Part shown: one piece after another, positions 2,709-46,081 of the stretch | How the letters are laid out: each line of letters starts with the position of its first letter | Numbering within the stretch: position 1 is the first letter of the stretch | Origin: Aspergillus flavus | Lineage: Eukaryota > Ascomycota > Eurotiomycetes > Eurotiales > Aspergillaceae | Direction of reading: 5' to 3' | Assembly: GCF_009017415.1 (NCBI RefSeq) | Contig: NC_092405.1 | Location: forward strand, 3,472,001 to 3,536,000 | DNA length: 64,000 nucleotides | Translations under genes and position numbers: made by a program | The notes under the pieces: generated by a model | Seen by the model: the letters and a program-made list of their open reading frames with translations, nothing else | Databases searched by the model: none | Told to the model about the DNA's origin: nothing

Positions 2709-3689
2709 TCAAACCCTAATCTCACCCGACTTAACCTGCACAGCAGTCCCCCTCAGCTCCACACTCTCCACCTTCCCCCTGTCCTCCGCATTCAAAGTAA
2801 CAGCAACACCAATATCACTCCTCCTCCCCATTTCCACCCCCTGCACAATATGATAATCAAACACAGCCTCGCTCTCCTCCCCAGCCCTCGTCAAAGTCAA
2901 ATACGCAGCCAACCCACTCGCCGCACTCCCCGTAGCCGGATCCTCAAAATTCCTCAAAAACATCCTCGACCGAATCACCGTCTTCCCAGTCTTCTCATCA
3001 TGCACCCCCGGAACAAAGAAATAGATCACAATCAAGCCGTCCCCCTCCCACCCAGCATCCAGATACCCACCCTGAGCCACAGAGTGACAAGGAACAACCT
3101 CCCCACTCACAGGCCCCTCAGCCGCAGCCAAAGCCTCCAAACTGGGTAACTGAACATGCACCTGACTCATGCCCTTTACGATCGAGAAAACCGGGAACCC
3201 CTTGTTCCCAGTATCATCACTAAGATAAGGTCTCAGCGAAGGATGAAGCCGCAGCAATTCCGACAGCGGAAACCTGCTCGAATGAATATGCACATTATGT
3301 GCAATTTTCGCCGCCACGGTACCCGAATCCGGGACACGGGTCATGGCAAACGGACCCGCTTTAGTGATGAGGGTTTGCACGTTCGTGCGATCGTCATTGT
3401 CGGGTGAGAGTTCCAGGAACCATGTTACTGCGCCGATGGTGGGATGTCCTGCGAAAGGGAGTTCTTCGGCGGTGGTGAAGATGTCAATTTTTCTTGTGGA
3501 GTCTGATTTCTCGTGGGGGTGCACGAAGATGGTTTCTGGGTAGTTGAATTCCCGGGCTATGAGTTGCTTTTGGTCTTGTGTGATGGCCTCTTCTGGGTTG
3601 TTGGGGAGAAAGACTACGCCTAGGGGGTTGCCTAGGTAGGGTTGGGTGGTGAAGACGTCGAGGGTGACGAAGCGTAGGGTTTGGGGCAT
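2709..3689 (-). CDS. PhzF-family isomerase/epimerase-like protein
   Basis: A single-exon gene of 326 aa, normal for the PhzF superfamily (two diaminopimelate-epimerase-like lobes). Visible family hallmarks are FVTLDVFTTQPYLGNPLGVV at the N-terminus, FNYPETIFV with the expected catalytic Glu52, FAGHPTIGAVTW, the C-lobe motif DPATGSAASGLAAYLT, and a late VEMGRRS. PhzF proteins catalyse cofactor-free proton shifts (trans-2,3-dihydro-3-hydroxyanthranilate isomerisation in phenazine producers). Fungal homologues mostly have unknown substrates, so phenazine synthesis should not be inferred. The gene is on the same strand as the downstream-numbered regulator, 316 bp away, and could belong to the amino-sugar cluster. 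That link is only positional. Confidence 0.88.
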   Translation of the reverse strand: MPQTLRFVTLDVFTTQPYLGNPLGVVFLPNNPEEAITQDQKQLIAREFNYPETIFVHPHEKSDSTRKIDIFTTAEELPFAGHPTIGAVTWFLELSPDNDDRTNVQTLITKAGPFAMTRVPDSGTVAAKIAHNVHIHSSRFPLSELLRLHPSLRPYLSDDTGNKGFPVFSIVKGMSQVHVQLPSLEALAAAEGPVSGEVVPCHSVAQGGYLDAGWEGDGLIVIYFFVPGVHDEKTGKTVIRSRMFLRNFEDPATGSAASGLAAYLTLTRAGEESEAVFDYHIVQGVEMGRRSDIGVAVTLNAEDRGKVESVELRGTAVQVKSGEIRV

Positions 3690-4005
3690 GATGGCGGGGT
3701 GTGTGTTGGGATTGTGGTTTGAAGTGAAGATTGATGCATGGTTCGCGGGGGAAGTGATGATTTAATGGACTCGGAATTCTATTCCTAACGGTTTGACTCA
3801 TTGACACGGCCCGGAACCCTGGAGAACTTTCGGCATTTCCGGGGCCCCACTCGGTACCGCTCGGCGGGATTCTGCTCGGTTTAGAACCGAAGAGCTTGCG
3901 TAATAGAATCATAGAGGTATTCTAATAGAAATTCGATCGAGGTTTGATATATGTACATGGTCTACATGAGCCCAATTAGAGTTCCCTCCACTGACAAGTC
4001 TAATA
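3690..4005. other. intergenic between PhzF gene and Zn-cluster regulator
   Basis: This 316 bp serves as the PhzF promoter and the regulator's 3' end. No separate gene is visible; the frame across 3484-3912 is a shadow of the PhzF gene. Confidence 0.5.
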
Positions 4006-6244
4006 CTAGATCACTAAGCCCCCATCAGCAATACTGACAGGGTACTGATCCAAGAACGTAGGGTATCCCATGTCACTGATGATTGGAATGTCGGGTGCCC
4101 AGTCTGGAAATTGACTGAAGAACGATTGGTCCTGGAAACCCAAGAATCCATCCATATTCGCGGGGTTATCGGCGGTAGATGGGCAGAAGGCCGCAATATC
4201 TGATTGCGGGACTGAGGGCTTGTCTGATGTCCCATCACGCGCATGTTGCTGATCATAATGTTGCACCTGCTTGCGAGCCATGGGATATGTGCCCAATGGA
4301 TTCAATATATGCTCCAAGGAAGACTGCGACGGTCTATTATGATCGTTACTTTCTATCGGACTGGTTTCTCTTATGGAACTAGTTGCTCTGCGTTCGGGAG
4401 TTTCGTTTGAGAATCGTGTGTTGAAGTGCTTTAGAGCTTGTGTCGCCGACTCATAGTATAAGTCTGCCTTGATATACCTTTGCAGGTACTTTAAGATTGT
4501 GACGTTGGTCTGTAATATATCCTTGTAATCACTATGCGATATGTGAGGCAGCGGAGGTTCGGGCTCTCTCCATGACGAAAGGCTGGTGACCAGGACGCTG
4601 CTACATATCTGTGTGTGGACCGCATAGGGAAGGTCGACGATGCTCAACTTATGGCAATTCCAGAGATCTTGTAATAAGGATCCGATATAGGCGGCCTTGC
4701 TGATACAGGTGCGATGGCAGAGCTTGATGAATTCAGCTGGTGCGTTTTCCCGTATCCATTTAGTCGCTGTATTCGGGAATACCAGTCGTGATACACCAAC
4801 ACGATACAAGTCATTGAATGTCTGGGCAATGAGTATATGCACGCCGAAAAACAGGTTCAAGCGACCAGACGCCTTGAAGATGTATATATTCTCCGCGGAC
4901 ATCTTGAGACTGTCCGGAATGGAAGCATCGAGCTCCCTGATTTCGTTGTCGAGTTTATGAAACTGAGAAGTTTCAGTGACCTCCCAGGGGATTTCACCCT
5001 CCAAGTGCTTGACATATTTCAAGATCTTGGAGCGGATAGCCATTGCTCTAATATAGTATGCACGGATATCAAGATTCTCAGCCGCACTCACCACCGCAGC
5101 GTCAGCGAAGGGAAGTAGTTTGCCTCTGGTCAGCATTTCTGTATTGCATGGGATGTTACGCACAAACAGGTCTTCGGAGCAGGGGAGCTGCACGTAAATA
5201 TCGCTGGAGGATATTAAGCAAAGCTGGTTAATACCACATTCTATAGAAGCATCGAGGAGATAGCAAGCCCATAGAACGCGTCTCCTAGTCTCCTTCGCAG
5301 CCCATGACATCTTACTCTTCCGACACAGGATGTCGTCATCGTACTCCATATTCAGCTGTAGGAGTTGAACATGTCGCGCGATGAAGCCTGAGATCAGGAA
5401 TCCCTTAGCATAATCGCCGACCCTCAGGTAATATTCATGGAGAAGAACCGCTGTAATGATACACTCGATTCGCGGACTCCCAAAGCTCGAAAACAAACAT
5501 TGCATCGCGGCCTCTGCCCAGCCCCTACCAGCATCAAAGTATAACACGGCGGAGCTAGGTCCATCCTCCTTGGAGGCGATCACCCTTGCACAGTAAAATG
5601 GAGCAGCCAATGCACACATGACATATATCAAGCCAGACATCTCGGTCAAGATCGTCTTTTTGTCTTTGAAGCGCTCCATGAAGGTCGGGATATGCAAGAA
5701 CCCCATACAGCGGACTGTATGAATTTGAGCGAAATAAATGTCAATGAGCTCTCGCACCCGATCGATTGGTGGCAAGTTTCTCATGACCAGCCATGTCGGG
5801 ATTGCCTGAGATGACCCCTGAACGTAAGTCTCCTCTCGGGGGTTTGGTTCCTCCTCGTGGAACGAACAATGCAAGCCCTTCTTAGTGCATCGGGTACATG
5901 CAGAACCACCCGAGCACTTGGACTTTGTTCGCTTGCATTCTAAACAAGACCGGAGGACACGTCGCCGTTTAAGCCCCGCCTGCGTCACAGAGTCACTGGA
6001 AGTAGGTCCCTCATCTGTCACGTTGGTATCCGTTCCAGCTTCCGTTGAGTATACACACTGCTCGCCAAGATTGCGACAGTTATTGCAAAATCCCTCACTG
6101 CGGTCACATTTGATCTAGTCATGTTGAAGTTAGCTGCGGTGGATCAGCAGACACGGGTGTGATATATCGGTTGAAGCTAGTCGGGACACGTACCTTCCGC
6201 CGGCGGCAGATCAGGCAGCTAGCAGACTTTCTCGACCCGCCCAT
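4006..6244 (-). CDS. transcription factor with two tandem Zn2Cys6 clusters
   Basis: Model: complement(join(4006..6114,6194..6244)), 719 aa. Exon 1 starts at the ATG at 6244 and encodes 17 residues. The intron 6115-6193 (79 nt) has donor GTACGT and acceptor TAG and is phase 0. Splicing completes a first cluster with Cys10, 13, 20, 27, 30 and 37 (spacing C-x2-C-x6-C-x6-C-x2-C-x6-C). A second perfect cluster follows at Cys74, 77, 84, 90, 93 and 100 (C-x2-C-x6-C-x5-C-x2-C-x6-C), flanked by basic KRRR. The first half-cluster sits in exon 1, so single-exon models starting near 6021 lose it. The rest (from about residue 115) is a fungal-specific TF middle-homology region ending in a disordered tail. 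A nuclear DNA-binding regulator is expected. Its position beside the transporter and etherase-kinase genes suggests it is the pathway regulator, which is inference. Confidence 0.88.
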
Positions 6245-6926: not shown

Positions 6927-8336
6927 TCAACAGTGGTCTGTTTCCACATTGTCTTTCCCCTTCCTAAGCGTCAACACAGAAGGAAGTGCTACCAAAAGGC
7001 TACCAATGCAAAGTCCCCAGTTCATAGCAAACTCAGACATGGCGTTAAGTTTGTTCGCATTGATTCGCCAGGCCATGGCACCACCCGCAGGTTTAAGAGC
7101 AGAATAGGTACCGACAATCACAGCATTGACCACAGGATTCTGGGACTGCGCCCCAATAATCCAATAGCAATACGACTGCCAAAACGAGTCGTAGGCGCCG
7201 TAGAAAAAGTACAAGAACATCGGACCGAGGTACTGACTACCAGCCTTGTAGTCAATGTCCTGTTTGAACCCGAGCTGCATACGTTGGTCATTCCAGAGCT
7301 GGAACTTGTATCCTCCTCCCCAGATAACCATGCCTGTGACAAATAATACCGCCCAGCCAATCCATGCTCGGGCTCGGCGGTTGATCCCCTTGAGATCTAG
7401 GACAGAGCCCATCAGAAGTCCTCCCACCATTTGAGCGATCCAGTACAATGCGCCATTGAGCGAGCGTGTGCGCAGGTTGAATGTCATGCCGTTCACGGTA
7501 TTTTGCTGATATGAATAGAACACGTTGGCATTGTAGAACATGGGATACAGGCACATGACCCTCCAGTCGATAACAATTTTGACTGTTTCCATAATCGTGC
7601 GCTTGAGGTTGGACCAATTGACGGCCTTCGAATCCTGCGAGATCCTACTGCCGTGGTATTTGCGAGACAGGGACTCAGTCGAGCACACAAACACCGACAG
7701 AACCCACCCAAACAGCATAACAACTATATAAGCAATGTACGTGGAGTCGGTCACAGTGCCAGATTTGGAATGGAAGTTCAGCCCGAAACTGGCAAGAGAG
7801 CCTATAGCTCCCCCGAGGTTAAACACGACCCAGAAGAGAGCGATGGCTCGTCCACGAGTGTTATCGTTGGTATAGGTAACCATGATCGTACCTTGGGCCA
7901 CCCAAAAGAAAGCGGCACCAAGACCTAGAATCGCGCCCGCCGCAATCACGAATGCGCCGTTTGCCGTTCTGTTGAAGTGCAGTAATGACCCTGCGTATAG
8001 AGCATAGGTCCATCCTCCGATAAGGAGAGACAATCGAGGGCCGAGGTATTTGTAGAATGCGCCCACTAGAACCAGGGCCGCGCCAGCAGTGCATGCATGA
8101 GTCGCGACATTCGAATTTGCAGCAACAGTGCCGTCTACCTGGCCAGAGCCTCCCATTCCAGTGAGAGCATTGTACATACCCGGATTGCAGAAAGAAATAA
8201 ACGAAATCAAGGACACTTGAAACCACGGATCGTGGTATATTCTGGCCCAGATATTTTTGGCTGGCCTTGGGGGAATCGATTCTTCATCGCGAGAGGATGA
8301 AATTACATCCGGCTCAGCGGACTTTGTTTCCGACAT
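6927..8336 (-). CDS. UNC93-like MFS transporter
   Basis: A single exon of 469 aa. I place the start at the ATG at 8336 because the longer in-frame extension to 8444 runs through promoter sequence, including a TATA-like element. The N-terminal ~35 residues are polar and cytosolic. The membrane region then opens with ISFCNPGMYNALTGMGGSGQ, the signature of fungal UNC93-like major facilitators. About 11-12 hydrophobic segments follow, with GRAIALFWVVFNLGGAIGSL in the central part. Fungal members are usually plasma-membrane permeases of unknown substrate. It is divergent from the MurQ-kinase fusion across a 438-bp shared promoter. This makes import of MurNAc or a muropeptide-derived sugar the natural hypothesis, but sequence alone cannot show the substrate. 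Confidence 0.88.
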   Translation of the reverse strand: MSETKSAEPDVISSSRDEESIPPRPAKNIWARIYHDPWFQVSLISFISFCNPGMYNALTGMGGSGQVDGTVAANSNVATHACTAGAALVLVGAFYKYLGPRLSLLIGGWTYALYAGSLLHFNRTANGAFVIAAGAILGLGAAFFWVAQGTIMVTYTNDNTRGRAIALFWVVFNLGGAIGSLASFGLNFHSKSGTVTDSTYIAYIVVMLFGWVLSVFVCSTESLSRKYHGSRISQDSKAVNWSNLKRTIMETVKIVIDWRVMCLYPMFYNANVFYSYQQNTVNGMTFNLRTRSLNGALYWIAQMVGGLLMGSVLDLKGINRRARAWIGWAVLFVTGMVIWGGGYKFQLWNDQRMQLGFKQDIDYKAGSQYLGPMFLYFFYGAYDSFWQSYCYWIIGAQSQNPVVNAVIVGTYSALKPAGGAMAWRINANKLNAMSEFAMNWGLCIGSLLVALPSVLTLRKGKDNVETDHC

Positions 8337-8396
8337 TGTGCTGGTAGACGGGGAACCACTGCAGATAACTTCAGTCGAGGAAAGAAGGCATGCGTG

Positions 8397-8404
8397 TATA
8401 TATA
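8397..8404 (-). promoter_or_regulatory. TATA-like element for the transporter gene
   Basis: TATATATA lies about 60 bp upstream of the chosen ATG of the UNC93-like gene. This is consistent with the start at 8336 rather than at an upstream in-frame codon. Confidence 0.35.
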
Positions 8405-8605
8405 GCCAAATGTGCAGCCAAATTCTGGTTTCCCATTGCGCCAAGTAAAAATCAGACGAGGTAGGGGTGATAAATTAATCCAGAACAGAACAGGATTAGC
8501 GGTTTATGAAGTTACATTTGCTAAAGAGACCTAAGTGTTGAATGCCGAACAAGAGTGCAAGACTAAAGTGAGCTACTGCACGTTATTTTGGCACGAGGTG
8601 CAATA

Positions 8606-8632
8606 CGGATATCGCGCGGATGTCGGCCACCG
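8606..8632. promoter_or_regulatory. candidate zinc-cluster operator in the divergent promoter
   Basis: CGGATATCG (8606-8614) and CGGATGTCG (8617-8625) form a direct repeat of period 11 bp with 8/9 identity. The second copy runs into CGG-N3-CCG (8624-8632). Zn2Cys6 proteins bind CGG triplets, usually in pairs. The cluster sits between the divergently transcribed transporter and etherase-kinase genes, about 145-170 bp from the latter's ATG. Binding by the neighbouring tandem-cluster regulator is a hypothesis. Confidence 0.4.
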
Positions 8633-8774
8633 AGTTCCACTTCTCGTCATATCTCGACGATTTCTAGTATATGGCGACCCTGGTTAAAAGCACGTTAAAT
8701 CTTTCCAAAAATAACAATATACAAACCCATGTCAGTCTCTAGCGGCATCGCGTGCAGTCACTAAACTCCAGACC

Positions 8775-10805
8775 ATGGCGCCATCGACAGATGTTGAACG
8801 TCTGGACCTGCTGCAGACAGAGGCCCGAACCTCAACTGCGGACAAGATCGATCTGCTTGACACACTGGGACTCTGTGAAGAATTCAATAAAGAAGAGAGG
8901 CGAGTTGGAGGAGCTGTCGCGTGCTGTCTACCAACTATTGCATCATTGATTGACGACTTAGCTCCGAGACTCGAAGCTGGAGGCAGGCTCATCTATGTTG
9001 GAGCCGGGAATAGCGGCCGGGTCGGGTTCATGGATTGCAGTGAACTGCCGGTGACCTTCTCGGTCGACCCCCAACAGTTTCTAACTGTCGTTGCAGGGGG
9101 TACTGAAGCCATAATTCAAGCCCAGGAAGGTGCTGAGGATGTGGAAAGTGACGGAGCTCTGAGAATGGAGGCTCTCCAGCTGAATGAGAAGGACACAGTA
9201 ATTGGAATTTCAGCATCGGGAAGAACCCCATTTGTTCTAGGAGCACTTCGAGTAGCTCTTAAGCATGATGCACTTACGGCTGGAATTACGAACACGTATC
9301 CCTCTAGAATTGACAAGCTCGGAGTCAAACACAGCATATGTCCTTTGGTTGGACCCGAATTTCTCACGGGAAGCACTAGACTCAAAGCAGGCAGCGCTGC
9401 TAAACAGATCCTCAACATGATCAGCACCTGCTCGATGGTAAAACTTGGCAAAACATATAAGGGCCTCATGATTGATGTACGAGTGAATAATTGGAAACTG
9501 AAGGCGCGTGGGAGAAGAATTGTGCGTCAGGTTTGCAATGGAGCCCCGATACACATCATAGAGAAGAACGGGCTACCGTCGTCACAGGCGGTTGACGTCC
9601 CTGAAACAGCTGATGGCGATGCGATCATTGACTCTTTGATCCGGGAGTGTCAGGGCAGTGTCAAGCTAGCCTGTGCAGTGGCTATCTCCGGCTTTCCTCC
9701 TGATGTTTCCAAGCAGATGCTTGATTCTGCAGGTGGTAACTTCCACGTTTTCGTTCAAGGAATTAGAATGAAGGCTCCGCCAAGCCCCGTGTCTCTTGGT
9801 GAGTCCGATTACTGTCTTTGCGTGGACGGCGGTGGAACGAACTGCACTGTGTCGATTGCAACAGAGTCCATGGTTGTTGGTCAAGGGGTCGCTGGTCCCT
9901 GTAATTTCAACGCGGTTACTCTAGACGAACTTATGGATCAAATAAAGCTGGCCACAAAACGGGCGTCCTCAACGATCCTTGCAAGGCAGGGATTTGGCTA
10001 TCCCAACCTACCAAGGTTCTCGAAGGTCTGGGTAGGATTGGCTGGGCTATACCATGCGGACCAGGTTGCAACATTGACCCGTCGCCTGGAGGAGCTCTTT
10101 GACGTTTCTGTAAAGAATGGAACACTGCGACTGACCAGTGACGGTATACTCCTCGGCTCCTGTATTGCAATGGATGACTCGGTCGAATGTGCGATTTCCG
10201 TGATTGCCGGGACAGGATCGGTAGCAACTGCCTTCAAAAAGGCCCCTTCAAACGAGATTGTCCAAGTTGGTCGGACAGGAGGTTGGGGCTACCTTATTGG
10301 GGATCAAGGGAGCGCTTTTGATATCGGCAAGAGGGCACTTCAGCTTGTTTTGTCCAGTGTCGAGCAAAGACAATTCCAAGCTACTCACGAGCTCACAGAG
10401 TTCGAGAGGGTGATCTTGGAAGAACTCAACTCTAACGAAGCAGGTGTCCTTACGCAAATATACCACTCGGATGCTAAGCCTAAAGAGAAAATAAGTGACA
10501 TGGCGAAGGTTGTCACAAAGTTAGGGTTTCGAGAACGGGACCCCGATCCTCAAGCGCTAGGAATTCTAACATCTGCAGCCGGTACTTTGCTTCAGCAGAT
10601 CAAACCACTTACTGAGATCTGTGACCCTCGTAAATGTGCACTCATTCTGTCTGGTGCCTTAATGAACCTTCCTGACTATCAGAATTTGATCCTACAGGAG
10701 TGGGACAAGCAACAGCAGTCACCATTCAAGAAAGTTTTGGTGGTCAATGATGCATCAGGCTATGCTGCTCAGTTTCTAGCTAGACAGAATATGACAATAT
10801 ACTAG
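8775..10805 (+). CDS. bifunctional MurNAc-6-phosphate etherase / amino-sugar kinase fusion
   Basis: A single exon of 676 aa with ATG in good context (ACCATGG). Residues 10-328 are MurQ: YVGAGNSGRVGFMDCSELPV, AGGTEAIIQAQEGAEDVE, DTVIGISASGRTPFVLGAL, GPEFLTGSTRLKAGSAAKQI and LMIDVRVNNWKLKARGRRIV, plus the small helical tail. The two catalytic Glu of bacterial MurQ correspond to Glu90 and Glu121, with the same 31-residue spacing. Residues 345-676 are a BadF/BadG/BcrA/BcrD-type kinase like NAGK and clostridial MurK, with DGGGT at 351-355, GTGS at 479-482, GGWGYLIGDQGSAFDIGKRA from 502 and LSGAL at 625-629. Predicted chemistry: MurNAc + ATP to MurNAc-6-P, then to GlcNAc-6-P + D-lactate. Fungal MurQ homologues may be labelled glucokinase regulator (GKRP)-like. 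The intact etherase residues and the single SIS domain argue for an enzyme. The origin is probably bacterial. Confidence 0.92.
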   Translation: MAPSTDVERLDLLQTEARTSTADKIDLLDTLGLCEEFNKEERRVGGAVACCLPTIASLIDDLAPRLEAGGRLIYVGAGNSGRVGFMDCSELPVTFSVDPQQFLTVVAGGTEAIIQAQEGAEDVESDGALRMEALQLNEKDTVIGISASGRTPFVLGALRVALKHDALTAGITNTYPSRIDKLGVKHSICPLVGPEFLTGSTRLKAGSAAKQILNMISTCSMVKLGKTYKGLMIDVRVNNWKLKARGRRIVRQVCNGAPIHIIEKNGLPSSQAVDVPETADGDAIIDSLIRECQGSVKLACAVAISGFPPDVSKQMLDSAGGNFHVFVQGIRMKAPPSPVSLGESDYCLCVDGGGTNCTVSIATESMVVGQGVAGPCNFNAVTLDELMDQIKLATKRASSTILARQGFGYPNLPRFSKVWVGLAGLYHADQVATLTRRLEELFDVSVKNGTLRLTSDGILLGSCIAMDDSVECAISVIAGTGSVATAFKKAPSNEIVQVGRTGGWGYLIGDQGSAFDIGKRALQLVLSSVEQRQFQATHELTEFERVILEELNSNEAGVLTQIYHSDAKPKEKISDMAKVVTKLGFRERDPDPQALGILTSAAGTLLQQIKPLTEICDPRKCALILSGALMNLPDYQNLILQEWDKQQQSPFKKVLVVNDASGYAAQFLARQNMTIY

Positions 10806-38646: not shown

Positions 38647-38958
38647 CTTGACTTTGACTGAGTGCGAAACGGCAGCAAGCAAGAGGCAGGAAGAAGGGAG
38701 AAAAGATAATGAATATAGAGTTGGTATAGGAGAGACTTCGCTGGAGGTCTCGATGCCGCCTTTCCCTCAAAAGGGTCTAGCGTGGCGACTCAAACAACAC
38801 GTCAACTGCCGCCGCCAATCAATACAAAAGCCGCGTAACCCTCCCTCTAAAGCTGTCGCAATTCTCCCGACTTGCCCCCTTTCCTTGTCTTGGGCAATGG
38901 GGAATCTGTGCGTTAGCTGCTGGCTTAGTTCTGCAGATAACCCCTCCCACCAAGCGGC
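38647..38958. promoter_or_regulatory. 312-bp divergent promoter, mannosyltransferase / gcpE
   Basis: The two start codons face away from each other across this stretch, so promoter elements must be shared or tightly packed. No specific site is identified. Confidence 0.5.
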
Positions 38959-41586
38959 ATGGCCATTCCCGCCAGCATTAGTGCGCTAACTGACGAGTTG
39001 GTTGCGACCGTCGCCAAAGTTGATAAAGGAACTCCCCGTTTCAAAATCCTGAAACGTCGTACCGAAGATACTCTTAGAGCAAATGCTCATGTCCGTACGG
39101 ACCAGTTTGCGGTTGCGAACCAGCTAGAGGGACTCCAAGAAAAGTTCCAGGTTCTCAATAAAGATGACTTAGCAGACGCTCTCCGCGTCCGTCTCACGGA
39201 GTTAAATGAACACAAGAACTCATGTTTCCCTGAGATCCTATCGTTATTGTTGCAGCTTGCTGATCGCCCTGCTCAGCTGTCAAAGGTAGATCGCCTTGAG
39301 AGTATAAAGAAGCCTCAAGAGCGTGTGGAATCCCTATCTTGGACGGAGTTAGATGTTTCTGGAACCGCGTATTGTGAGGAGGATATATGGGAATCTGTAG
39401 ACTTCGGCGCTGGATCCTCCGAGGATGACCTCTCGTCCGTATCAAGCGATAGCTATCAGGGACGATCTTTGCCTCAAACCTCCATAGCCCTAGAAGAGGA
39501 CTACGTGATTCCAGAAGACCTATTTTCTTCAGGAGAAGATGAAGACCTTGTGGTTTCGATCAAAAGCGCCCAATTCTGGCGAAATAAAACCAGTACCGAT
39601 ACTGAGCAGCATGGAGGCAAACCCTCGCAAGTTCTCACAGAGCTTCAGATTGTAAGAGAGACAATATTCATGCTACAAGGCCTACCTACCTCCTTATTCT
39701 GGCGTCATCATGAAAGCGTTGAGGTAGATCGAAAATACTCGCTGGCGCATTTATCAAGTGAAACGCTATCTTCATTACTACGTTCATTTTGCTCCATTGG
39801 GTCAAAAATAGACATTTTACGACGATACAATCAAGTCCCGCGGGTTATTCCTTACCTGCAGACTTTCCACCGGGGCATTGAAGATCGCCTGCGCGAGTTT
39901 GACAGGTTCTTATCTAATGTGCAGGCACAGTACCTATCGCAATCCAGAACTATTGCTGTCAGTCTTCTGCAGCTATACGAGAGCGTTCTCCGTGAATCAA
40001 AGCTGCTTCTTTTGTTAGCAGAAATTGTATCTAATCTCAGACATGATGCATCGGATAGCCCAGTACGTTGTCTTGATCTCCTCTACGACTCCGTCTGCAT
40101 GACGCAAGCTACCGGTGACGAGAATGAGTTCAAGTTCCTGGCTCAACTGTTTTTTTCGTGCTTCGAGACCTATGCACGCCCAATTCGCCTTTGGATGGAA
40201 AAGGGAGAGTTGGAGGAGACTGTGCAAGGCTCCTTTTTCATTCGCGATAACCGCAATAATGACCTAGACCTACGAACCTTATGGCATGGATGGTATACAT
40301 TGGATGAATCGGCATGGATTTCAAGTGCACCGAAATTCGTCCAACCTGTCGCTCGCAAGATTTTCGTCGCAGGCAAAAGCATGGTCTTTTTACGACATTT
40401 GGATGTATCAGGGGACGATGCACACGCAAGAAAGAGCTCATTAACGCTTGGAGATGTGTTCCCGGAAGACTCTGCTTCCGTTTACATGCCGTTCTCGGCA
40501 TTGCTCGACTCAGCCTTCGGGCGAATAGTGGACGAGAACCACTCCTTCACATCATCACTATTGCGAAGAGAGCTTGATCAGCAGTGTGGGCTATGGATCT
40601 CCCTTCAGGCGCTGGAACATATCTACCATTGCAAAGACATGAGCGTATACGGACCCATCGACCATAAAATCTTCGACCTTATCGACCGAGGCAGAGGAGC
40701 CTGGGACGACCGCTATCTGCTCACCGAACTCGCCCAGAGCGCATTCAGCACTTTACCATTCATTGACCCATCTAGAGTAATAGTTCGATCATCCAAAGAC
40801 CCCACCAACAAAGCACACACCCACAGTCGCTCTGTCAAACTCCTCCAAGCCATCTCATTCGACTACGTCCTCCCCTGGCCCGTAGCCAATATCATCACGA
40901 AAGACGCCATCCTAAGCTACCAACGCCTCTCGACATTCCTCATGCAAATCCGCAGAGCGAAACACACAATCGTAAAACAACGCCTACAATACTCACCCGA
41001 AATCTACGAAGCCAGAAAGAACGCCCAGGCCTACGCCCTGCGACATAACATGCTCTGGTTCCTCAACACACTATACAGCCACATGACCGACTTCGTCATC
41101 TCAACTACCACTAACTCACTCCGCAAAGACCTCTCGGCCTGCAATGACGTCGACACAATGGTGTCCGTCCACCAATCTTACATGTCCTCATTGGAAGACC
41201 AATGCCTTCTCTCCCAAAACCTAGTCCCCCTTTACGAAGCGATCATCTCCCTCCTCGACCTCTGTGTCTCCTTCTCCGATCTCCAATCTACTCGCTATAC
41301 CCAGACCAAGTCTGCCCAGAAAGAATACGGGCAGGACAAAGACCAGAGCGATGAAGAGGAAGACGAAGACGAAGACGATGAGCCTGAACACGACGAGAAA
41401 CAGACACCAGTTCACGAAACACAATACTTACAGCAAGTGAAAACAACCCAGGATCAGTTCAATCAACTTGTCGGTTTCCTGGCCGCTGGATTGAAGGGTG
41501 TGGGTCGTGCTAATGCGCAGGTTAGCTGGGAGATTTTAGCTGAGAGGTTGGAGTGGAGGAAGGAGCGGACGGCGGATCATGTATGA
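38959..41586 (+). CDS. gcpE: gamma-tubulin complex component 5 (GCP5-like, Spc97/Spc98 family)
   Basis: A single exon of 875 aa from the ATG at 38959. It has a GCP N-terminal (grip1-like) region from about residue 230, with LQIVRETIFMLQGLPTSLFW and LSSETLSSLLRSFCSIGSKI, and a C-terminal (grip2-like) region with FDYVLPWPVANIITKDAILS, YQRLSTFLMQIRRAKHTI and RHNMLWFLNTLYSHMTDFVI. An acidic low-complexity insert (SDEEEDEDEDDEPEHDE) lies near residue 795. The FDY..PWP..NII...A...Y...F..L motif is diagnostic of Spc97/98 proteins, which build the gamma-tubulin ring complex that nucleates microtubules at spindle pole bodies and septa. Assignment to GCP5, rather than GCP4 or 6, rests on size and the N-terminal type and is less certain than the family. 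Confidence 0.85.
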   Translation: MAIPASISALTDELVATVAKVDKGTPRFKILKRRTEDTLRANAHVRTDQFAVANQLEGLQEKFQVLNKDDLADALRVRLTELNEHKNSCFPEILSLLLQLADRPAQLSKVDRLESIKKPQERVESLSWTELDVSGTAYCEEDIWESVDFGAGSSEDDLSSVSSDSYQGRSLPQTSIALEEDYVIPEDLFSSGEDEDLVVSIKSAQFWRNKTSTDTEQHGGKPSQVLTELQIVRETIFMLQGLPTSLFWRHHESVEVDRKYSLAHLSSETLSSLLRSFCSIGSKIDILRRYNQVPRVIPYLQTFHRGIEDRLREFDRFLSNVQAQYLSQSRTIAVSLLQLYESVLRESKLLLLLAEIVSNLRHDASDSPVRCLDLLYDSVCMTQATGDENEFKFLAQLFFSCFETYARPIRLWMEKGELEETVQGSFFIRDNRNNDLDLRTLWHGWYTLDESAWISSAPKFVQPVARKIFVAGKSMVFLRHLDVSGDDAHARKSSLTLGDVFPEDSASVYMPFSALLDSAFGRIVDENHSFTSSLLRRELDQQCGLWISLQALEHIYHCKDMSVYGPIDHKIFDLIDRGRGAWDDRYLLTELAQSAFSTLPFIDPSRVIVRSSKDPTNKAHTHSRSVKLLQAISFDYVLPWPVANIITKDAILSYQRLSTFLMQIRRAKHTIVKQRLQYSPEIYEARKNAQAYALRHNMLWFLNTLYSHMTDFVISTTTNSLRKDLSACNDVDTMVSVHQSYMSSLEDQCLLSQNLVPLYEAIISLLDLCVSFSDLQSTRYTQTKSAQKEYGQDKDQSDEEEDEDEDDEPEHDEKQTPVHETQYLQQVKTTQDQFNQLVGFLAAGLKGVGRANAQVSWEILAERLEWRKERTADHV

Positions 41587-41953: not shown

Positions 41954-44900
41954 TTAACCGACCCATCTTCTGGCACTGTAGAAGACACGGCCCCAGGGAC
42001 CGATGTCACCCCATTCCTGGGCCTTGGCGGGCAGCCAGCTGGCGATACCGCCCATGACGGTACGCTCGGGGTGAGGCATGATGGCCAGGACACGGCCGTT
42101 GGCGTTGCGGATACCGGCGATACCCTCGGGACTGCCGTTCGGGTTGAATGGGTATTTCATGGTTGGCTTGAGACCGGCGTTGTCAACGTACTGGACGGGA
42201 GCGAGACCTTCCTGAACGAAGGATTGGGCGGTGACATTGGAAGAGGGGGAGAAGGAGGCACGACCCTCGCCGTGGGCGACGGCGATAGGCAGCGAGGTGC
42301 CGTCCATGCCGTGGAAGAAGACGCTGGGTCTGGAGGGATCAGGGTCCGACACACGAACCATACAGACACGGCCTTCATACTGCTCGCTGGCGTTGCGCTC
42401 GAAGCTGGGCCAGTTTTGGGCGCCGGGGATCAACTCCTTCAGACGAGACAGGAATTGACAACCGTTGCAGACACCCAAAGCGAAGGTGTCAGGGCGCTCG
42501 AAGAAGCTCTGGAATTCGGAACGAGTGTTCTCGTGCAGCAGGACAGACTTGGCCCAACCTTGACCGGCACCAAGCACGTCACCGTAAGAGAAACCACCGC
42601 AGGCAGCCATGCCAACAAAGCTGGCGAGAGACACACGTCCAGAGATGATGTCGGTCATGTGGACATCGACGGCGGAGAAGCCAGCCATGTTGAAAGCGAA
42701 AGCCATCTCAGCCTGGCTGTTCACACCCTGCTCACGCAAAATAGCTACGCGAGGCTTGTTGCTGAAAGGAGACATCGAGGTCAGGCTGGTGAGCATAGGG
42801 AGAGCCTTATCCTTGGGGTCGAAAGTTGGGTTCCATGACAGACCAGGGTCGGCATCATCAAGAATGTTGGCATATTCCTGATCAGCACAAGCAGCGTTGT
42901 CACGCATCTTCTGCATATGGTACGAAGTGCTGGACCAGGTCTGCTGAAGGTTGGCACGGTTGTTGCGATACACCAAAGTGTGTCCGTGGTAAATGGCAAG
43001 GTTCTGCTTGGTTCTCTCGGAAACTCGTCCAATCTTGTGGATCAGGCCAGCAGGGGGACCACATGTGGCAAAGCAGGAGCGGAACTGGATCTCGTGTTCT
43101 TTGCGGACCTGGAACACAGCTCCCAGCTCTTCAGTGAACAGAGTCTCCACGACATCCTTCGTGCCGGAGCTGGGGCAGATGTTATCGAGCATGACCTCGA
43201 CACCGCAACGACCGGCAAACATCATCTCTGCAAGGGTGGTGAACAGACCACCATCAGATCTATCATGGTAGGCCAGGACAATGCCCGCGTCCTGCAATTG
43301 TTGAGTAGCATCGAAGAAGTCCTTGAAGATTTCAACATCACGGACATCAGGACAGTCGTCACCCACCTGGTTGAAGACCTGAGCAAGGGCAGAGCCTCCC
43401 AAAGTCTTGCGGCCGAAGGAGAGATCGACGAACATAAGGACGGTCTCACCGACGTCCTCCAGACGACGAAGAGCCGGAGTCCAGGTCTTGCGGTAGTTGC
43501 CAACCGGTGCAAAAGCCGAGATGACAAGAGACATAGGCGCAGTAACCTCCTTCGCCTGCTTAGAGGCTTCATCAGTCCACTTCATCTTCATGGACATGGA
43601 ATCCTTTCCGACAGGAATGCTGATACCAAGCTTGGGGCAAAGATCCATTCCAATGGCTTCCGCAGCCTCGTAGATGGCGGCACCTTCACCTGGGTGGCTG
43701 CTAGCGGACATCCAGTTGGCAGAGAGCTTCACGTGGCTGAGACGGTCAACCAGATCGGCAGCGGCAATGTTCATGAGTGACTCCGCAACAGCCATACGTG
43801 CCGAAGCAGCAGGAGAGATCAAGGCAAGGCTTGGTCTCTCACCCATGGCCATGGCCTCACCAGTCTTAACTCCTTGAAGCAATGCTGTGGCAGTGACAGC
43901 GACATCAGACACAGGAGTCTGCCACCTACCAACCATCTGGTCGCGTGCAGTGAGACCACCAACTGTTCTGTCACCAATCGTGATGAGGAAAGATTTGGAG
44001 GCAACAGCAGGAAGAGAGAGTACTCTGTTGGCAGCCTCCCCGATGAGCTCAAGATGGTTGGGTGCAAGAGCAGGCAGGTACTTCGTAAGGGTTGCATCGA
44101 CGGCGGGAAGTTTCAATTTACGAGATTCAACGACGCGAGTCATCTTAGGAGGCTTTCCGAATAGGACGGACAGGGGCAAGTCAATAGGCTTGGGGTACTC
44201 GGTCGAGTCCCTGTCCATGAGAACGAGCCTCTTCTCCTCCTCGGACGTTCCACCTCCACGACCAACAACGGAGAAGCCACAACGCTCACGGTTGGCAATA
44301 GCCGTGAACTTGTTCATGGAGTCCTCCCCAACAGCCATGACGTATCTCTCCTGAGCTTCACAGCACCAGATCTGCATGGGGCTCATGCTCTTGTCGGCAC
44401 TGTCAATCTCACGAAGTTCAAAAGTGGCACCCAGGCCGGAATCATGGATCAGTTCGGGAAGGGCGTTGGAGAGACCTCCAGCACCAACGTCATGGATGAA
44501 CTTGATAGGGTTGTTATCACCCATAGCGGTACAAGCGTTAATCACTTCCTGTGCTCTCCGCTGGACTTCAGCGTTGCCTCTCTGCACACTAGCAAAGTCC
44601 AGCTCAGCAGAACCTTCACCCGAGGTAATACTGGAGGCGGCACCACCACCCAGACCGATCAGCATGGCAGGCCCACCAAGGACGACGAGGAAAGCACCAG
44701 GCTTTACAACTTCTGGCTTCTTGATGGCATGCTGGGGCCGGACAGTTCCGACACCACCGGCAAGCATGATGGGCTTATGGTAACCTCGAACTTCCTTCTG
44801 GCCATTGCCAATATCAATTTCTGTCAGCAAAGTACGGAAATAGCCAGAAATACAGGGCCGTCCGAATTCGTTGTTGAAAGCCGCGCTACCAATGGGAGCC

Positions 44901-46048
44901 TCCAACATGATATCCAAGCTGCTAGCGATGTGGTTCGGTTTGCCCACATCCAGTTCCCATGGCTGTTTCAAGCCAGGAATCTGCAGGTCGGAGACACAGT
45001 ATCCGGCAAGACCTGCCTTGGGCTTTGAGCCTCGTCCGACAGCACCTTCGTCACGGATCTCACCGCCGGAGCCGGTTGCGGCACCAGGGTATGGGGATAC
45101 CGCCGTAGGATGGTTGTGGGTTTCGACCTTAGCCAAGAAGTGAACAATCTCTTTCGTATGATTCCACTCCCCAGTGGTAGCGTCGGGAGCCCAGTGAGCG
45201 GCGACATCGCCCTCAAGAACAGCAGCATTGTCGCTGTAGGCACTGACTGTGTACTCTGGGTTTTTCTTGTGTGTATTCCGGATCATCGCGAACAAGCTGT
45301 TGGGCATTTGTTTTCCATCGATGACCCAGGAAGCATTGAATTGCTTATGACGGCAGTGTTCCGAGTTGACCTGTGCGAACATGAAGAGCTCGACATCGGT
45401 AGGGTCACGGGCAATAGGGCCATTGGGACCATAGGCTTCCGCAATGTACTCAATTTCAGATTCTTCCAGAGCCAACCCTAAATGTTTGTTTGCTTCCTGC
45501 AACACCTCCTTCGGAGATTTGTCGCTCCCGTGGAGGGGGATGGTCTCAAGGGGAAGAGGACTGTGCTCGGAAAACATCAGGTGTAGGTCAGGTTCTTCCT
45601 GGCCCAGAACCTGTGTCATGCGATCGTGCAAGACATCCTGGAAACCCGACTTATATTCTGCGGAGCTAGCGCGGAGACACGAGATCTTCAATCCGCGCTC
45701 AATACGGTCGACATACTTGCGCAAGCCACAGACGTGAGCGATACCGGTGGCCTGTGAACTCCATGGGGAAATGGTTCCCGTCCGAGGGAAGACGTAGAAG
45801 ACATCGAACTGGCCGTCCTCGGCACTGAAGGAGGGAGGGATGTCGGTGATATCACCATATTGCAGGAGCTGCTTCAGAACGTTCTGCTGCGGTTCATCCA
45901 AGGGTTGAGAAGCATGAACGTAGTGAATCCATTGGGCTCGAACATCTTGAGCTCCAATGCTGGCCGCAATTGCATGTCCCCGGGAGCGAGAGAAGGCAAC
46001 AGACCCGGGGAGGGCCAGAAAGGTGGAAGCGGAGGAAGCGGAGGTCAT
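41954..46048 (-). CDS. ADE6: phosphoribosylformylglycinamidine (FGAM) synthase
   Basis: An uninterrupted 1364-aa gene, the normal size of the large eukaryotic PurL. It converts FGAR + Gln + ATP to FGAM in de novo purine synthesis in the cytosol. Domain order is a PurS-like N-terminus (~1-150), a linker, two AIRS-type ATP-grasp-like halves (FAQVNSEHCRHKQFNASWVI, VETHNHPTAVSPYPGAATGS, VGGLTARDQMVGRWQTPVSD) and a C-terminal class I glutamine amidotransferase. The amidotransferase triad is visible: Cys1194 in GVCNGCQFLS, and His1326 and Glu1328 in PHPERTVMGG. The oxyanion/glycine strand CGGFSYGDVLGAGQGWAKS is intact. It is complete and apparently functional. Confidence 0.97.
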   Translation of the reverse strand: MTSASSASTFLALPGSVAFSRSRGHAIAASIGAQDVRAQWIHYVHASQPLDEPQQNVLKQLLQYGDITDIPPSFSAEDGQFDVFYVFPRTGTISPWSSQATGIAHVCGLRKYVDRIERGLKISCLRASSAEYKSGFQDVLHDRMTQVLGQEEPDLHLMFSEHSPLPLETIPLHGSDKSPKEVLQEANKHLGLALEESEIEYIAEAYGPNGPIARDPTDVELFMFAQVNSEHCRHKQFNASWVIDGKQMPNSLFAMIRNTHKKNPEYTVSAYSDNAAVLEGDVAAHWAPDATTGEWNHTKEIVHFLAKVETHNHPTAVSPYPGAATGSGGEIRDEGAVGRGSKPKAGLAGYCVSDLQIPGLKQPWELDVGKPNHIASSLDIMLEAPIGSAAFNNEFGRPCISGYFRTLLTEIDIGNGQKEVRGYHKPIMLAGGVGTVRPQHAIKKPEVVKPGAFLVVLGGPAMLIGLGGGAASSITSGEGSAELDFASVQRGNAEVQRRAQEVINACTAMGDNNPIKFIHDVGAGGLSNALPELIHDSGLGATFELREIDSADKSMSPMQIWCCEAQERYVMAVGEDSMNKFTAIANRERCGFSVVGRGGGTSEEEKRLVLMDRDSTEYPKPIDLPLSVLFGKPPKMTRVVESRKLKLPAVDATLTKYLPALAPNHLELIGEAANRVLSLPAVASKSFLITIGDRTVGGLTARDQMVGRWQTPVSDVAVTATALLQGVKTGEAMAMGERPSLALISPAASARMAVAESLMNIAAADLVDRLSHVKLSANWMSASSHPGEGAAIYEAAEAIGMDLCPKLGISIPVGKDSMSMKMKWTDEASKQAKEVTAPMSLVISAFAPVGNYRKTWTPALRRLEDVGETVLMFVDLSFGRKTLGGSALAQVFNQVGDDCPDVRDVEIFKDFFDATQQLQDAGIVLAYHDRSDGGLFTTLAEMMFAGRCGVEVMLDNICPSSGTKDVVETLFTEELGAVFQVRKEHEIQFRSCFATCGPPAGLIHKIGRVSERTKQNLAIYHGHTLVYRNNRANLQQTWSSTSYHMQKMRDNAACADQEYANILDDADPGLSWNPTFDPKDKALPMLTSLTSMSPFSNKPRVAILREQGVNSQAEMAFAFNMAGFSAVDVHMTDIISGRVSLASFVGMAACGGFSYGDVLGAGQGWAKSVLLHENTRSEFQSFFERPDTFALGVCNGCQFLSRLKELIPGAQNWPSFERNASEQYEGRVCMVRVSDPDPSRPSVFFHGMDGTSLPIAVAHGEGRASFSPSSNVTAQSFVQEGLAPVQYVDNAGLKPTMKYPFNPNGSPEGIAGIRNANGRVLAIMPHPERTVMGGIASWLPAKAQEWGDIGPWGRVFYSARRWVG

Positions 46049-46074
46049 TCTGAACCTGGAGGAGGGACCCGAAA

Positions 46075-46081
46075 TGACTCA
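46075..46081. promoter_or_regulatory. TGACTCA element upstream of ADE6
   Basis: TGACTCA, the Gcn4/CpcA consensus (also containing the Bas1 core TGACTC), lies 27 bp upstream of the ADE6 ATG. These factors control purine and amino-acid genes in fungi. The site is very close to the ATG and may lie in the leader, so its function is uncertain. Confidence 0.35.

What the first reader, a model, noticed from the sequence alone, without database searches (positions are those of the whole stretch)
8775..10805. Fused MurNAc-6-P etherase and amino-sugar kinase in a fungus
One uninterrupted 676-aa gene contains a full MurQ etherase (both catalytic Glu retained at 90 and 121) and a full BadF/BadG-type kinase related to NAGK and clostridial MurK (DGGGT, GTGS and LSGAL motifs present). 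In bacteria these are two consecutive steps of peptidoglycan-sugar recycling on separate proteins. A fungus has no peptidoglycan, so the fusion suggests a catabolic enzyme for bacterial-wall MurNAc. It may make GlcNAc-6-P and D-lactate from MurNAc in one polypeptide. Fungal MurQ homologues are easily mislabelled glucokinase regulators.
Basis: partly seen in the sequence, partly recalled or inferred. Interest (0 to 1): 0.88.

Follow-up and report, generated by a model that had tools for sequence, protein, structure and literature searches.

The report
Fungal two-in-one bacterial-wall-sugar enzyme
This mould gene joins, in one protein, two enzymes that bacteria use to recycle N-acetylmuramic acid, a sugar typical of bacterial walls; relatives in many moulds keep both active sites, which suggests that these fungi can feed on dead bacteria by a route not yet tested in the laboratory.

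Summary
Window 8775-10805 (+) is one intronless 676-aa gene (99% to Aspergillus oryzae). Residues 1-330 are a MurQ-type MurNAc-6-P etherase; 345-676 a BadF-type amino-sugar kinase whose nearest solved relative is Clostridium MurK. Of 88 fungal-type fusions compared, E90 is kept in 83, E121 in 86, the kinase Asp in 88; the etherase core is the better conserved part in 84 of 87. Best reading: a bifunctional MurNAc kinase and MurNAc-6-P etherase making GlcNAc-6-P and D-lactate. A glucokinase-regulator role is unlikely. The genome also has a GH25 muramidase, NagA- and NagB-family genes and, beside this gene, an UNC-93-type transporter. Not shown: activity, substrate, transport, source of peptide-free MurNAc. 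My searches listed no paper on it; a 2026 paper calls murQ transfer potentially unique to Camponotini ants.

The parts
8775..10805 (+). bifunctional MurNAc-6-P etherase / amino-sugar kinase gene (function inferred), 676 aa, one open frame
8775..9764 (+). MurQ-type etherase domain, residues 1-330 (SIS core plus C-terminal helical part)
9042..9044 (+). codon of catalytic-type Glu90
   Evidence: alignment to solved MurQ; kept in 83 of 88 fungal-type fusions
9135..9137 (+). codon of catalytic-type Glu121
   Evidence: 86 of 88
9765..9806 (+). linker, residues 331-344; low-confidence stretch 334-341 in the model
9807..10802 (+). BadF/NAGK/MurK-type kinase domain, residues 345-676
10140..10142 (+). 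codon of kinase catalytic-type Asp456 (aligned with human NAGK D107)
   Evidence: alignment; 88 of 88
10209..10220 (+). GTGS phosphate-binding motif, residues 479-482
10278..10289 (+). GGWG sugar-pocket loop, residues 502-505, no bulky Glu/His
8337..8774 (.). 438-bp divergent intergenic region shared with the transporter gene (if its ATG is the one at 8336); no motif tried is enriched above shuffles
6927..8336 (-). UNC-93/MFS-type transporter, 469 aa from the chosen ATG, divergent neighbour; candidate importer (inference)
4006..6114 (-). open frame (stop to stop, start not determined) of a Zn2Cys6 fungal transcription factor, candidate regulator (inference)
2709..3761 (-). open frame (stop to stop) of a PhzC/PhzF-like protein; link to the pathway unknown

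Best explanation
A bifunctional enzyme of MurNAc catabolism. The C-terminal BadF-type kinase phosphorylates O6 of MurNAc with ATP (Asp456 as the sugar-binding base); the N-terminal MurQ domain then cleaves the lactyl ether (Glu90 and Glu121), giving GlcNAc-6-P and D-lactate. GlcNAc-6-P would go on through the fungus's own NagA- and NagB-type enzymes to fructose-6-P. MurNAc would come from bacterial walls cut outside the cell, e.g. with the GH25 muramidase, and enter perhaps through the divergent UNC-93-type transporter. Shown here: domain identities, conserved active-site residues, the fungal family, and the pairing of the two genes in bacteria. Inferred: substrate, activity, cellular place, uptake and regulation.
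Confidence: 0.74

Rival explanations
1. Primarily a GlcNAc (or other hexosamine) kinase to which an etherase is attached but matters little.
For: Fold as near NAGK and a broad archaeal hexokinase as MurK; in 5 of 88 relatives E90 of the etherase is lost while the kinase Asp is kept; the 8zo3 MurK itself is named a MurNAc/GlcNAc kinase.
Against: The etherase core is the better conserved part in 84 of 87 relatives; repeated pairing of this kinase family with MurQ in bacteria. The genome has hexokinase-family matches at six places, which could serve GlcNAc.
Confidence: 0.13
2. An enzyme pair for some other lactyl- or ether-bearing sugar, e.g. repair of an internal by-product, not bacterial MurNAc.
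For: Fungi make no peptidoglycan; no Amidase_2 gene was found; the fungal etherase has its own change, N79 in 80 of 88.
Against: The rest of the etherase motifs keep bacterial residues in most relatives, and a secreted-looking GH25 muramidase is present.
Confidence: 0.09
3. A glucokinase-regulator (GKRP) homologue acting by protein binding, as the database names suggest.
For: Best Pfam hit is GKRP_SIS_N; public names 'glucokinase regulator family protein'.
Confidence: 0.03
4. Bacterial contamination, mis-assembly or a false join of two genes.
For: No eukaryotic peptidoglycan; bacterial-looking domains.
Against: Lies on one of eight contigs of a 37.7-Mb assembly among fungal genes; the same fused length in the deposited A. 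oryzae cluster and fusions in many named fungi; similar GC3 in both halves, 0.476 and 0.488 (the three neighbours have 0.55-0.61).
Confidence: 0.01

Closest known systems
MurQ, MurNAc-6-phosphate etherase (H. influenzae 4lzj, Yersinia 4s12)
   Different: fused to a kinase; Asn for Thr at 79; 34-42% identity in the structure alignments; separate fungal group
MurK, MurNAc/GlcNAc kinase of Clostridium acetobutylicum (8zo3)
   Same: closest solved sequence (E 9.7e-17), DGGGx, GPxN, GTGS, GGWG and GD motifs
   Different: no etherase in the 306-aa chain; 24-25% identity; Ser here where MurK has Asn before the catalytic Asp
MurQ-BadF fusions of bacteria in the same order (e.g. P0100, Limnoglobus roseus) and planctomycete murQ-kinase gene pairs
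   Same: same domain order, same families
   Different: different groups for both halves; one shared fusion origin disfavoured, p 0.0249 and 0.0258
Reverse-order kinase-MurQ fusions (P0111, P0112, P0117)
   Same: same two domains in one chain
   Different: kinase first; own group in both trees
Human NAGK
   Different: 18% identity; no etherase
Glucokinase regulatory protein (GKRP)
   Same: SIS/MurQ ancestry
   Different: two SIS domains, incomplete catalytic pairs, no kinase domain
murQ transferred to Camponotini ants (PMC13320244)
   Same: MurQ in a eukaryote
   Different: from Spiroplasma/Mollicutes; the passages read mention no kinase partner

Membership tests
MurQ (MurNAc-6-P etherase) | profile match over the whole domain | tested here: met
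   PRK05441 301.9 bits, cut-off 168
MurQ (MurNAc-6-P etherase) | equivalog model TIGR00274 above its cut-off | tested here: not met
   258.7 bits, cut-off 302
MurQ (MurNAc-6-P etherase) | two catalytic glutamates | tested here: met
   E90 and E121 aligned with solved MurQ; 83 and 86 of 88 fungal-type fusions
MurQ (MurNAc-6-P etherase) | MurQ fold including the C-terminal part | tested here: met
MurQ (MurNAc-6-P etherase) | releases D-lactate from MurNAc-6-P | not testable with these tools
   needs an assay
BadF/BadG/NAGK kinase (PF01869) | family match above the gathering score | tested here: met
   45.8 bits, cut-off 31.5
MurK (MurNAc kinase) | catalytic Asp and ATP loops | tested here: met
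   D456, D351-T355, GTGS
MurK (MurNAc kinase) | room for the lactyl group: no bulky Glu/His at the S133-L135 loop, no Asn at T94 (T. forsythia numbering) | tested here: met
   GGW and Ser455 by sequence alignment; permissive, not diagnostic, since Clostridium MurK has Asn
MurK (MurNAc kinase) | Asn that contacts O4 (T. forsythia N119, human NAGK N130) | tested here: not met
   Val483 here, 88 of 88 fungal-type; Clostridium MurK has Ile, so not required of all MurK
MurK (MurNAc kinase) | phosphorylates MurNAc | not testable with these tools
   needs an assay
NAGK (NagK_SO3507 equivalog) | score above cut-off | tested here: not met
   65.1 bits, cut-off 370
GKRP | two SIS domains in tandem | tested here: not met
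   one SIS/MurQ domain followed by a kinase
GKRP | fructose-phosphate-dependent glucokinase binding | not testable with these tools
   needs an assay

The most novel reading that the evidence does not exclude
Filamentous ascomycetes carry a dedicated MurNAc-eating pathway: a fused MurK-MurQ enzyme of old, fungal-specific descent whose fusion arose independently of the bacterial ones, with its own UNC-93-type importer and Zn2Cys6 regulator beside it. They would use it to live on bacterial necromass, sending the bacterial-wall sugar into their chitin/GlcNAc metabolism.
Probability: 0.4. Interest if true: 0.78.

Novelty: new variant of a known kind. Interest (0 to 1): 0.64.

Why it matters
MurNAc is a marker of bacterial walls and of bacterial necromass in soil. 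A widespread fungal enzyme that turns MurNAc into GlcNAc-6-P would mean that common moulds can eat a wall sugar whose use is known mainly from bacteria, would change how muramic-acid budgets of soils are read, and would correct a mislabel (glucokinase regulator) found on several of the fungal relatives listed. [quoted passage not shown] this fungal family speaks against the uniqueness, if its origin is a transfer. The repeated joining of the same two enzymes in separate lineages makes a two-step channel directly testable in one protein.

Tried and rejected
One shared origin of the fungal and the planctomycete-type same-order fusion: disfavoured only moderately (AU p 0.0249 for MurQ, 0.0258 for kinase). 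The group was named after the trees were seen, and two further bacterial fusions (L085, L090) were left out of it, so the p values are approximate; an unsampled fused donor remains possible and the trees are unrooted. One origin of the two fungal fusion groups without the two single-domain rows is not rejected (p 0.359). In the kinase tree the second fungal group is not supported as one clade (41/17) and seven rows have long branches. Recent transfer by composition: no sign. Regulatory motifs in the 438-bp intergenic region (Zn2Cys6, GATA, CreA): none above shuffles. GH25 found, Amidase_2 not found (six-frame search without introns, so a split gene could be missed). Hexokinase near the NagA-like gene: none of the nine matches lies on C8. 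The adjacency counts and 42/66 came from loci ranked by a fusion query and are biased towards pairs; the ranking by a Streptomyces MurQ is fairer but covers the 30 best of 209 matching genomes among 392. Papers on a fungal MurQ or a MurQ-kinase fusion: none seen in the listings; most listed papers were not opened (for instance PMC7052976 on Euglenozoa, which names the etherase, and PMC6448482), and the library misses most subscription journals, so this is not proof of absence. The review by Jaeger and Mayer 2008 is not held.

Full report
WHAT IS THERE. The ORF 8775-10805 (+) is uninterrupted and encodes 676 aa. The genome is 37.7 Mb in eight contigs; a search of it with the whole protein gives one match, this gene, and the kinase family PF01869 gives one further, weak match under its cut-off (27.9 bits, C1). 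The nearest protein cluster (99% identity, 25 members, same length) is named Aspergillus oryzae. Neighbouring frames are an UNC-93/MFS transporter (divergent), a Zn2Cys6 regulator and a PhzF-like protein. GC3 is similar in both halves (0.476, 0.488).

ACTIVE SITES. The search with the whole protein found 396 proteins and listed 120. Of these and the window protein (121), 116 have both domains and at least 560 aa: 88 of the window's type (P0001 to P0090; the named ones are Pezizomycotina fungi, taxonomy recalled; the rest come from unnamed contigs), 4 of a second fungal type, 21 of bacterial type in the same order and 3 in reverse order, the last not counted below. E90 is kept in 83 of 88, E121 in 86 of 88, kinase D456 in 88 of 88; 4 of 4 and 21 of 21 in the other two same-order sets. 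The five without E90 are P0053 (gap), P0056, P0085, P0086 and P0088 (Lys); P0085 and P0088 have Asp at 121. Place 79 is Asn in 80 of 88 but Thr in the other two sets. Over 87 relatives the etherase core (13-255) is more like the window's than the kinase (345-672) in 84 (medians 66.7% and 47.6%), which speaks against a vestigial etherase.

KINASE POCKET. In T. forsythia MurK (PMC10465942; outline, passages and part 1 of section 8 read) the lactyl group fits because S133-P134-L135 and T94 leave room. By the alignment, with human G145 matching P134 as the paper says, these places are G502-G503-W504 and Ser455 here; human NAGK has GGW and Thr, and phosphorylates MurNAc to a level like GlcNAc (PMC9477735; passages read). 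Val483 replaces an Asn that touches O4; Clostridium MurK has Ile there and Asn where Ser455 stands. So the pocket permits MurNAc but does not prove it.

ASSOCIATION IN BACTERIA. In 80 named loci found with a bacterial fusion alignment, a kinase of this family lies within 500 bp on the same strand in 20 (13 after murQ, 7 before), not so in 60, and is fused in none; the loci were ranked by a fusion query, so the share is inflated. In 392 planctomycete genomes ranked by a fusion (164 with a match), of the 29 loci counted (the 30 best less L082, the same place as L002) 18 are adjacent, 2 fused and 9 neither. Ranked instead by a Streptomyces MurQ (209 of 392 with a match), of the 30 best 19 are adjacent, 1 fused and 10 neither. 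Fusions in reverse order and three MurQ-type proteins carrying PF03702 (AnmK, recalled) point the same way: a usual partner of MurQ is a MurNAc-type kinase.

DESCENT. In the MurQ tree (82 rows) the two fungal fusion groups, a Mycena single-domain protein and an unnamed close relative of it form one group (100/99); the Limnoglobus-type fusions sit among planctomycete single genes. In the kinase tree (93 rows) the two fungal groups together form one group (100/100), though the second alone is not supported (41/17). Holding fungal and Limnoglobus-type fusions together is disfavoured at p 0.0249 and 0.0258 (named after seeing the trees, L085 and L090 left out). The likely reading is an old fungal gain and a fungal fusion of its own; donor and direction are not resolved, and the trees are unrooted. 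The two single-domain rows have Asp at place 90.

PATHWAY CONTEXT. The genome has one GH25 muramidase match with a signal-peptide-like start (judged by eye), a NagA-like gene at C8:1974685-1975937 in two exon matches (191.2 and 37.3 bits, under the cut-off of 225.65; a third weak match lies on C6), PF01182 matches at C1:2221590 (241.5 bits) and C8:1967928 (51.9 bits; the family also holds 6-phosphogluconolactonases, recalled), and no Amidase_2 match. Six UNC-93-type matches exist; the window's transporter is nearest one at C4:386308 (57% over 354 aa) and then one at C8:1979245 (36% over 431 aa), about 3.3 kb from the NagA-like gene. A relative beside a likely GlcNAc-6-P deacetylase makes amino-sugar uptake by the window's transporter a fair guess, no more. 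No hexokinase match lies on C8. In C. albicans, DAC1 and NAG1 take GlcNAc-6-P to fructose-6-P and NGT1 imports GlcNAc (PMC3551598, passages read; see also PMC4376941, passages); that NGT1 is of the UNC-93 type was not tested.

NOVELTY. The listings of my searches show no paper on a fungal MurQ or a MurQ-kinase fusion; most listed papers were not opened and the library lacks most subscription journals. A ciliate transcriptome paper proposes MurNAc use from MurNAc-6-P etherase and kinase transcripts (PMC6925433, passages read), and an ant paper reports murQ transfer as potentially unique to Camponotini ants (PMC13320244, passages read). Database names already include 'N-acetylmuramic acid 6-phosphate etherase' for fungal members, so what is new is the reading of the fusion, its spread, its probably independent origin and the mislabel, not the existence of the sequences.

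Noticed in passing
window 10284-10286 (residue W504): The deposited A. oryzae cluster representative P0002 has Cys where the window protein and the other 86 fungal-type fusions compared have Trp in the GGWG sugar loop; a possible weak kinase allele in some A. oryzae.
   Followed up: partly
P0056, P0085, P0086, P0088 (relatives): Fusions with Lys in place of the first etherase Glu but the kinase Asp kept: possible kinase-only paralogues or bad gene models (P0085 and P0086 also).
   Followed up: partly
P0150 (Mycena rosella), P0165 (unnamed relative): Single-domain MurQ with Asp in place of the first Glu and an altered EGAED motif; function may differ.
   Followed up: partly
P0133, P0167, P0230: MurQ-type proteins listed with PF03702 (AnmK, recalled) as well, i.e. 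another kinase/etherase joining.
   Followed up: no
L085, L090: Two planctomycete-search genomes with single-ORF MurQ-kinase fusions outside the Limnoglobus-type group, suggesting repeated fusion.
   Followed up: partly
window 2709-3761: PhzF-like frame three genes from the fusion; unknown role, could be a further enzyme of the same cluster.
   Followed up: no
window 41954-46078 (-), 38941-41586 (+): FGAR amidotransferase (purine synthesis) and gamma-tubulin-complex GCP5/Mod21-like frames, ordinary genes.
   Followed up: no
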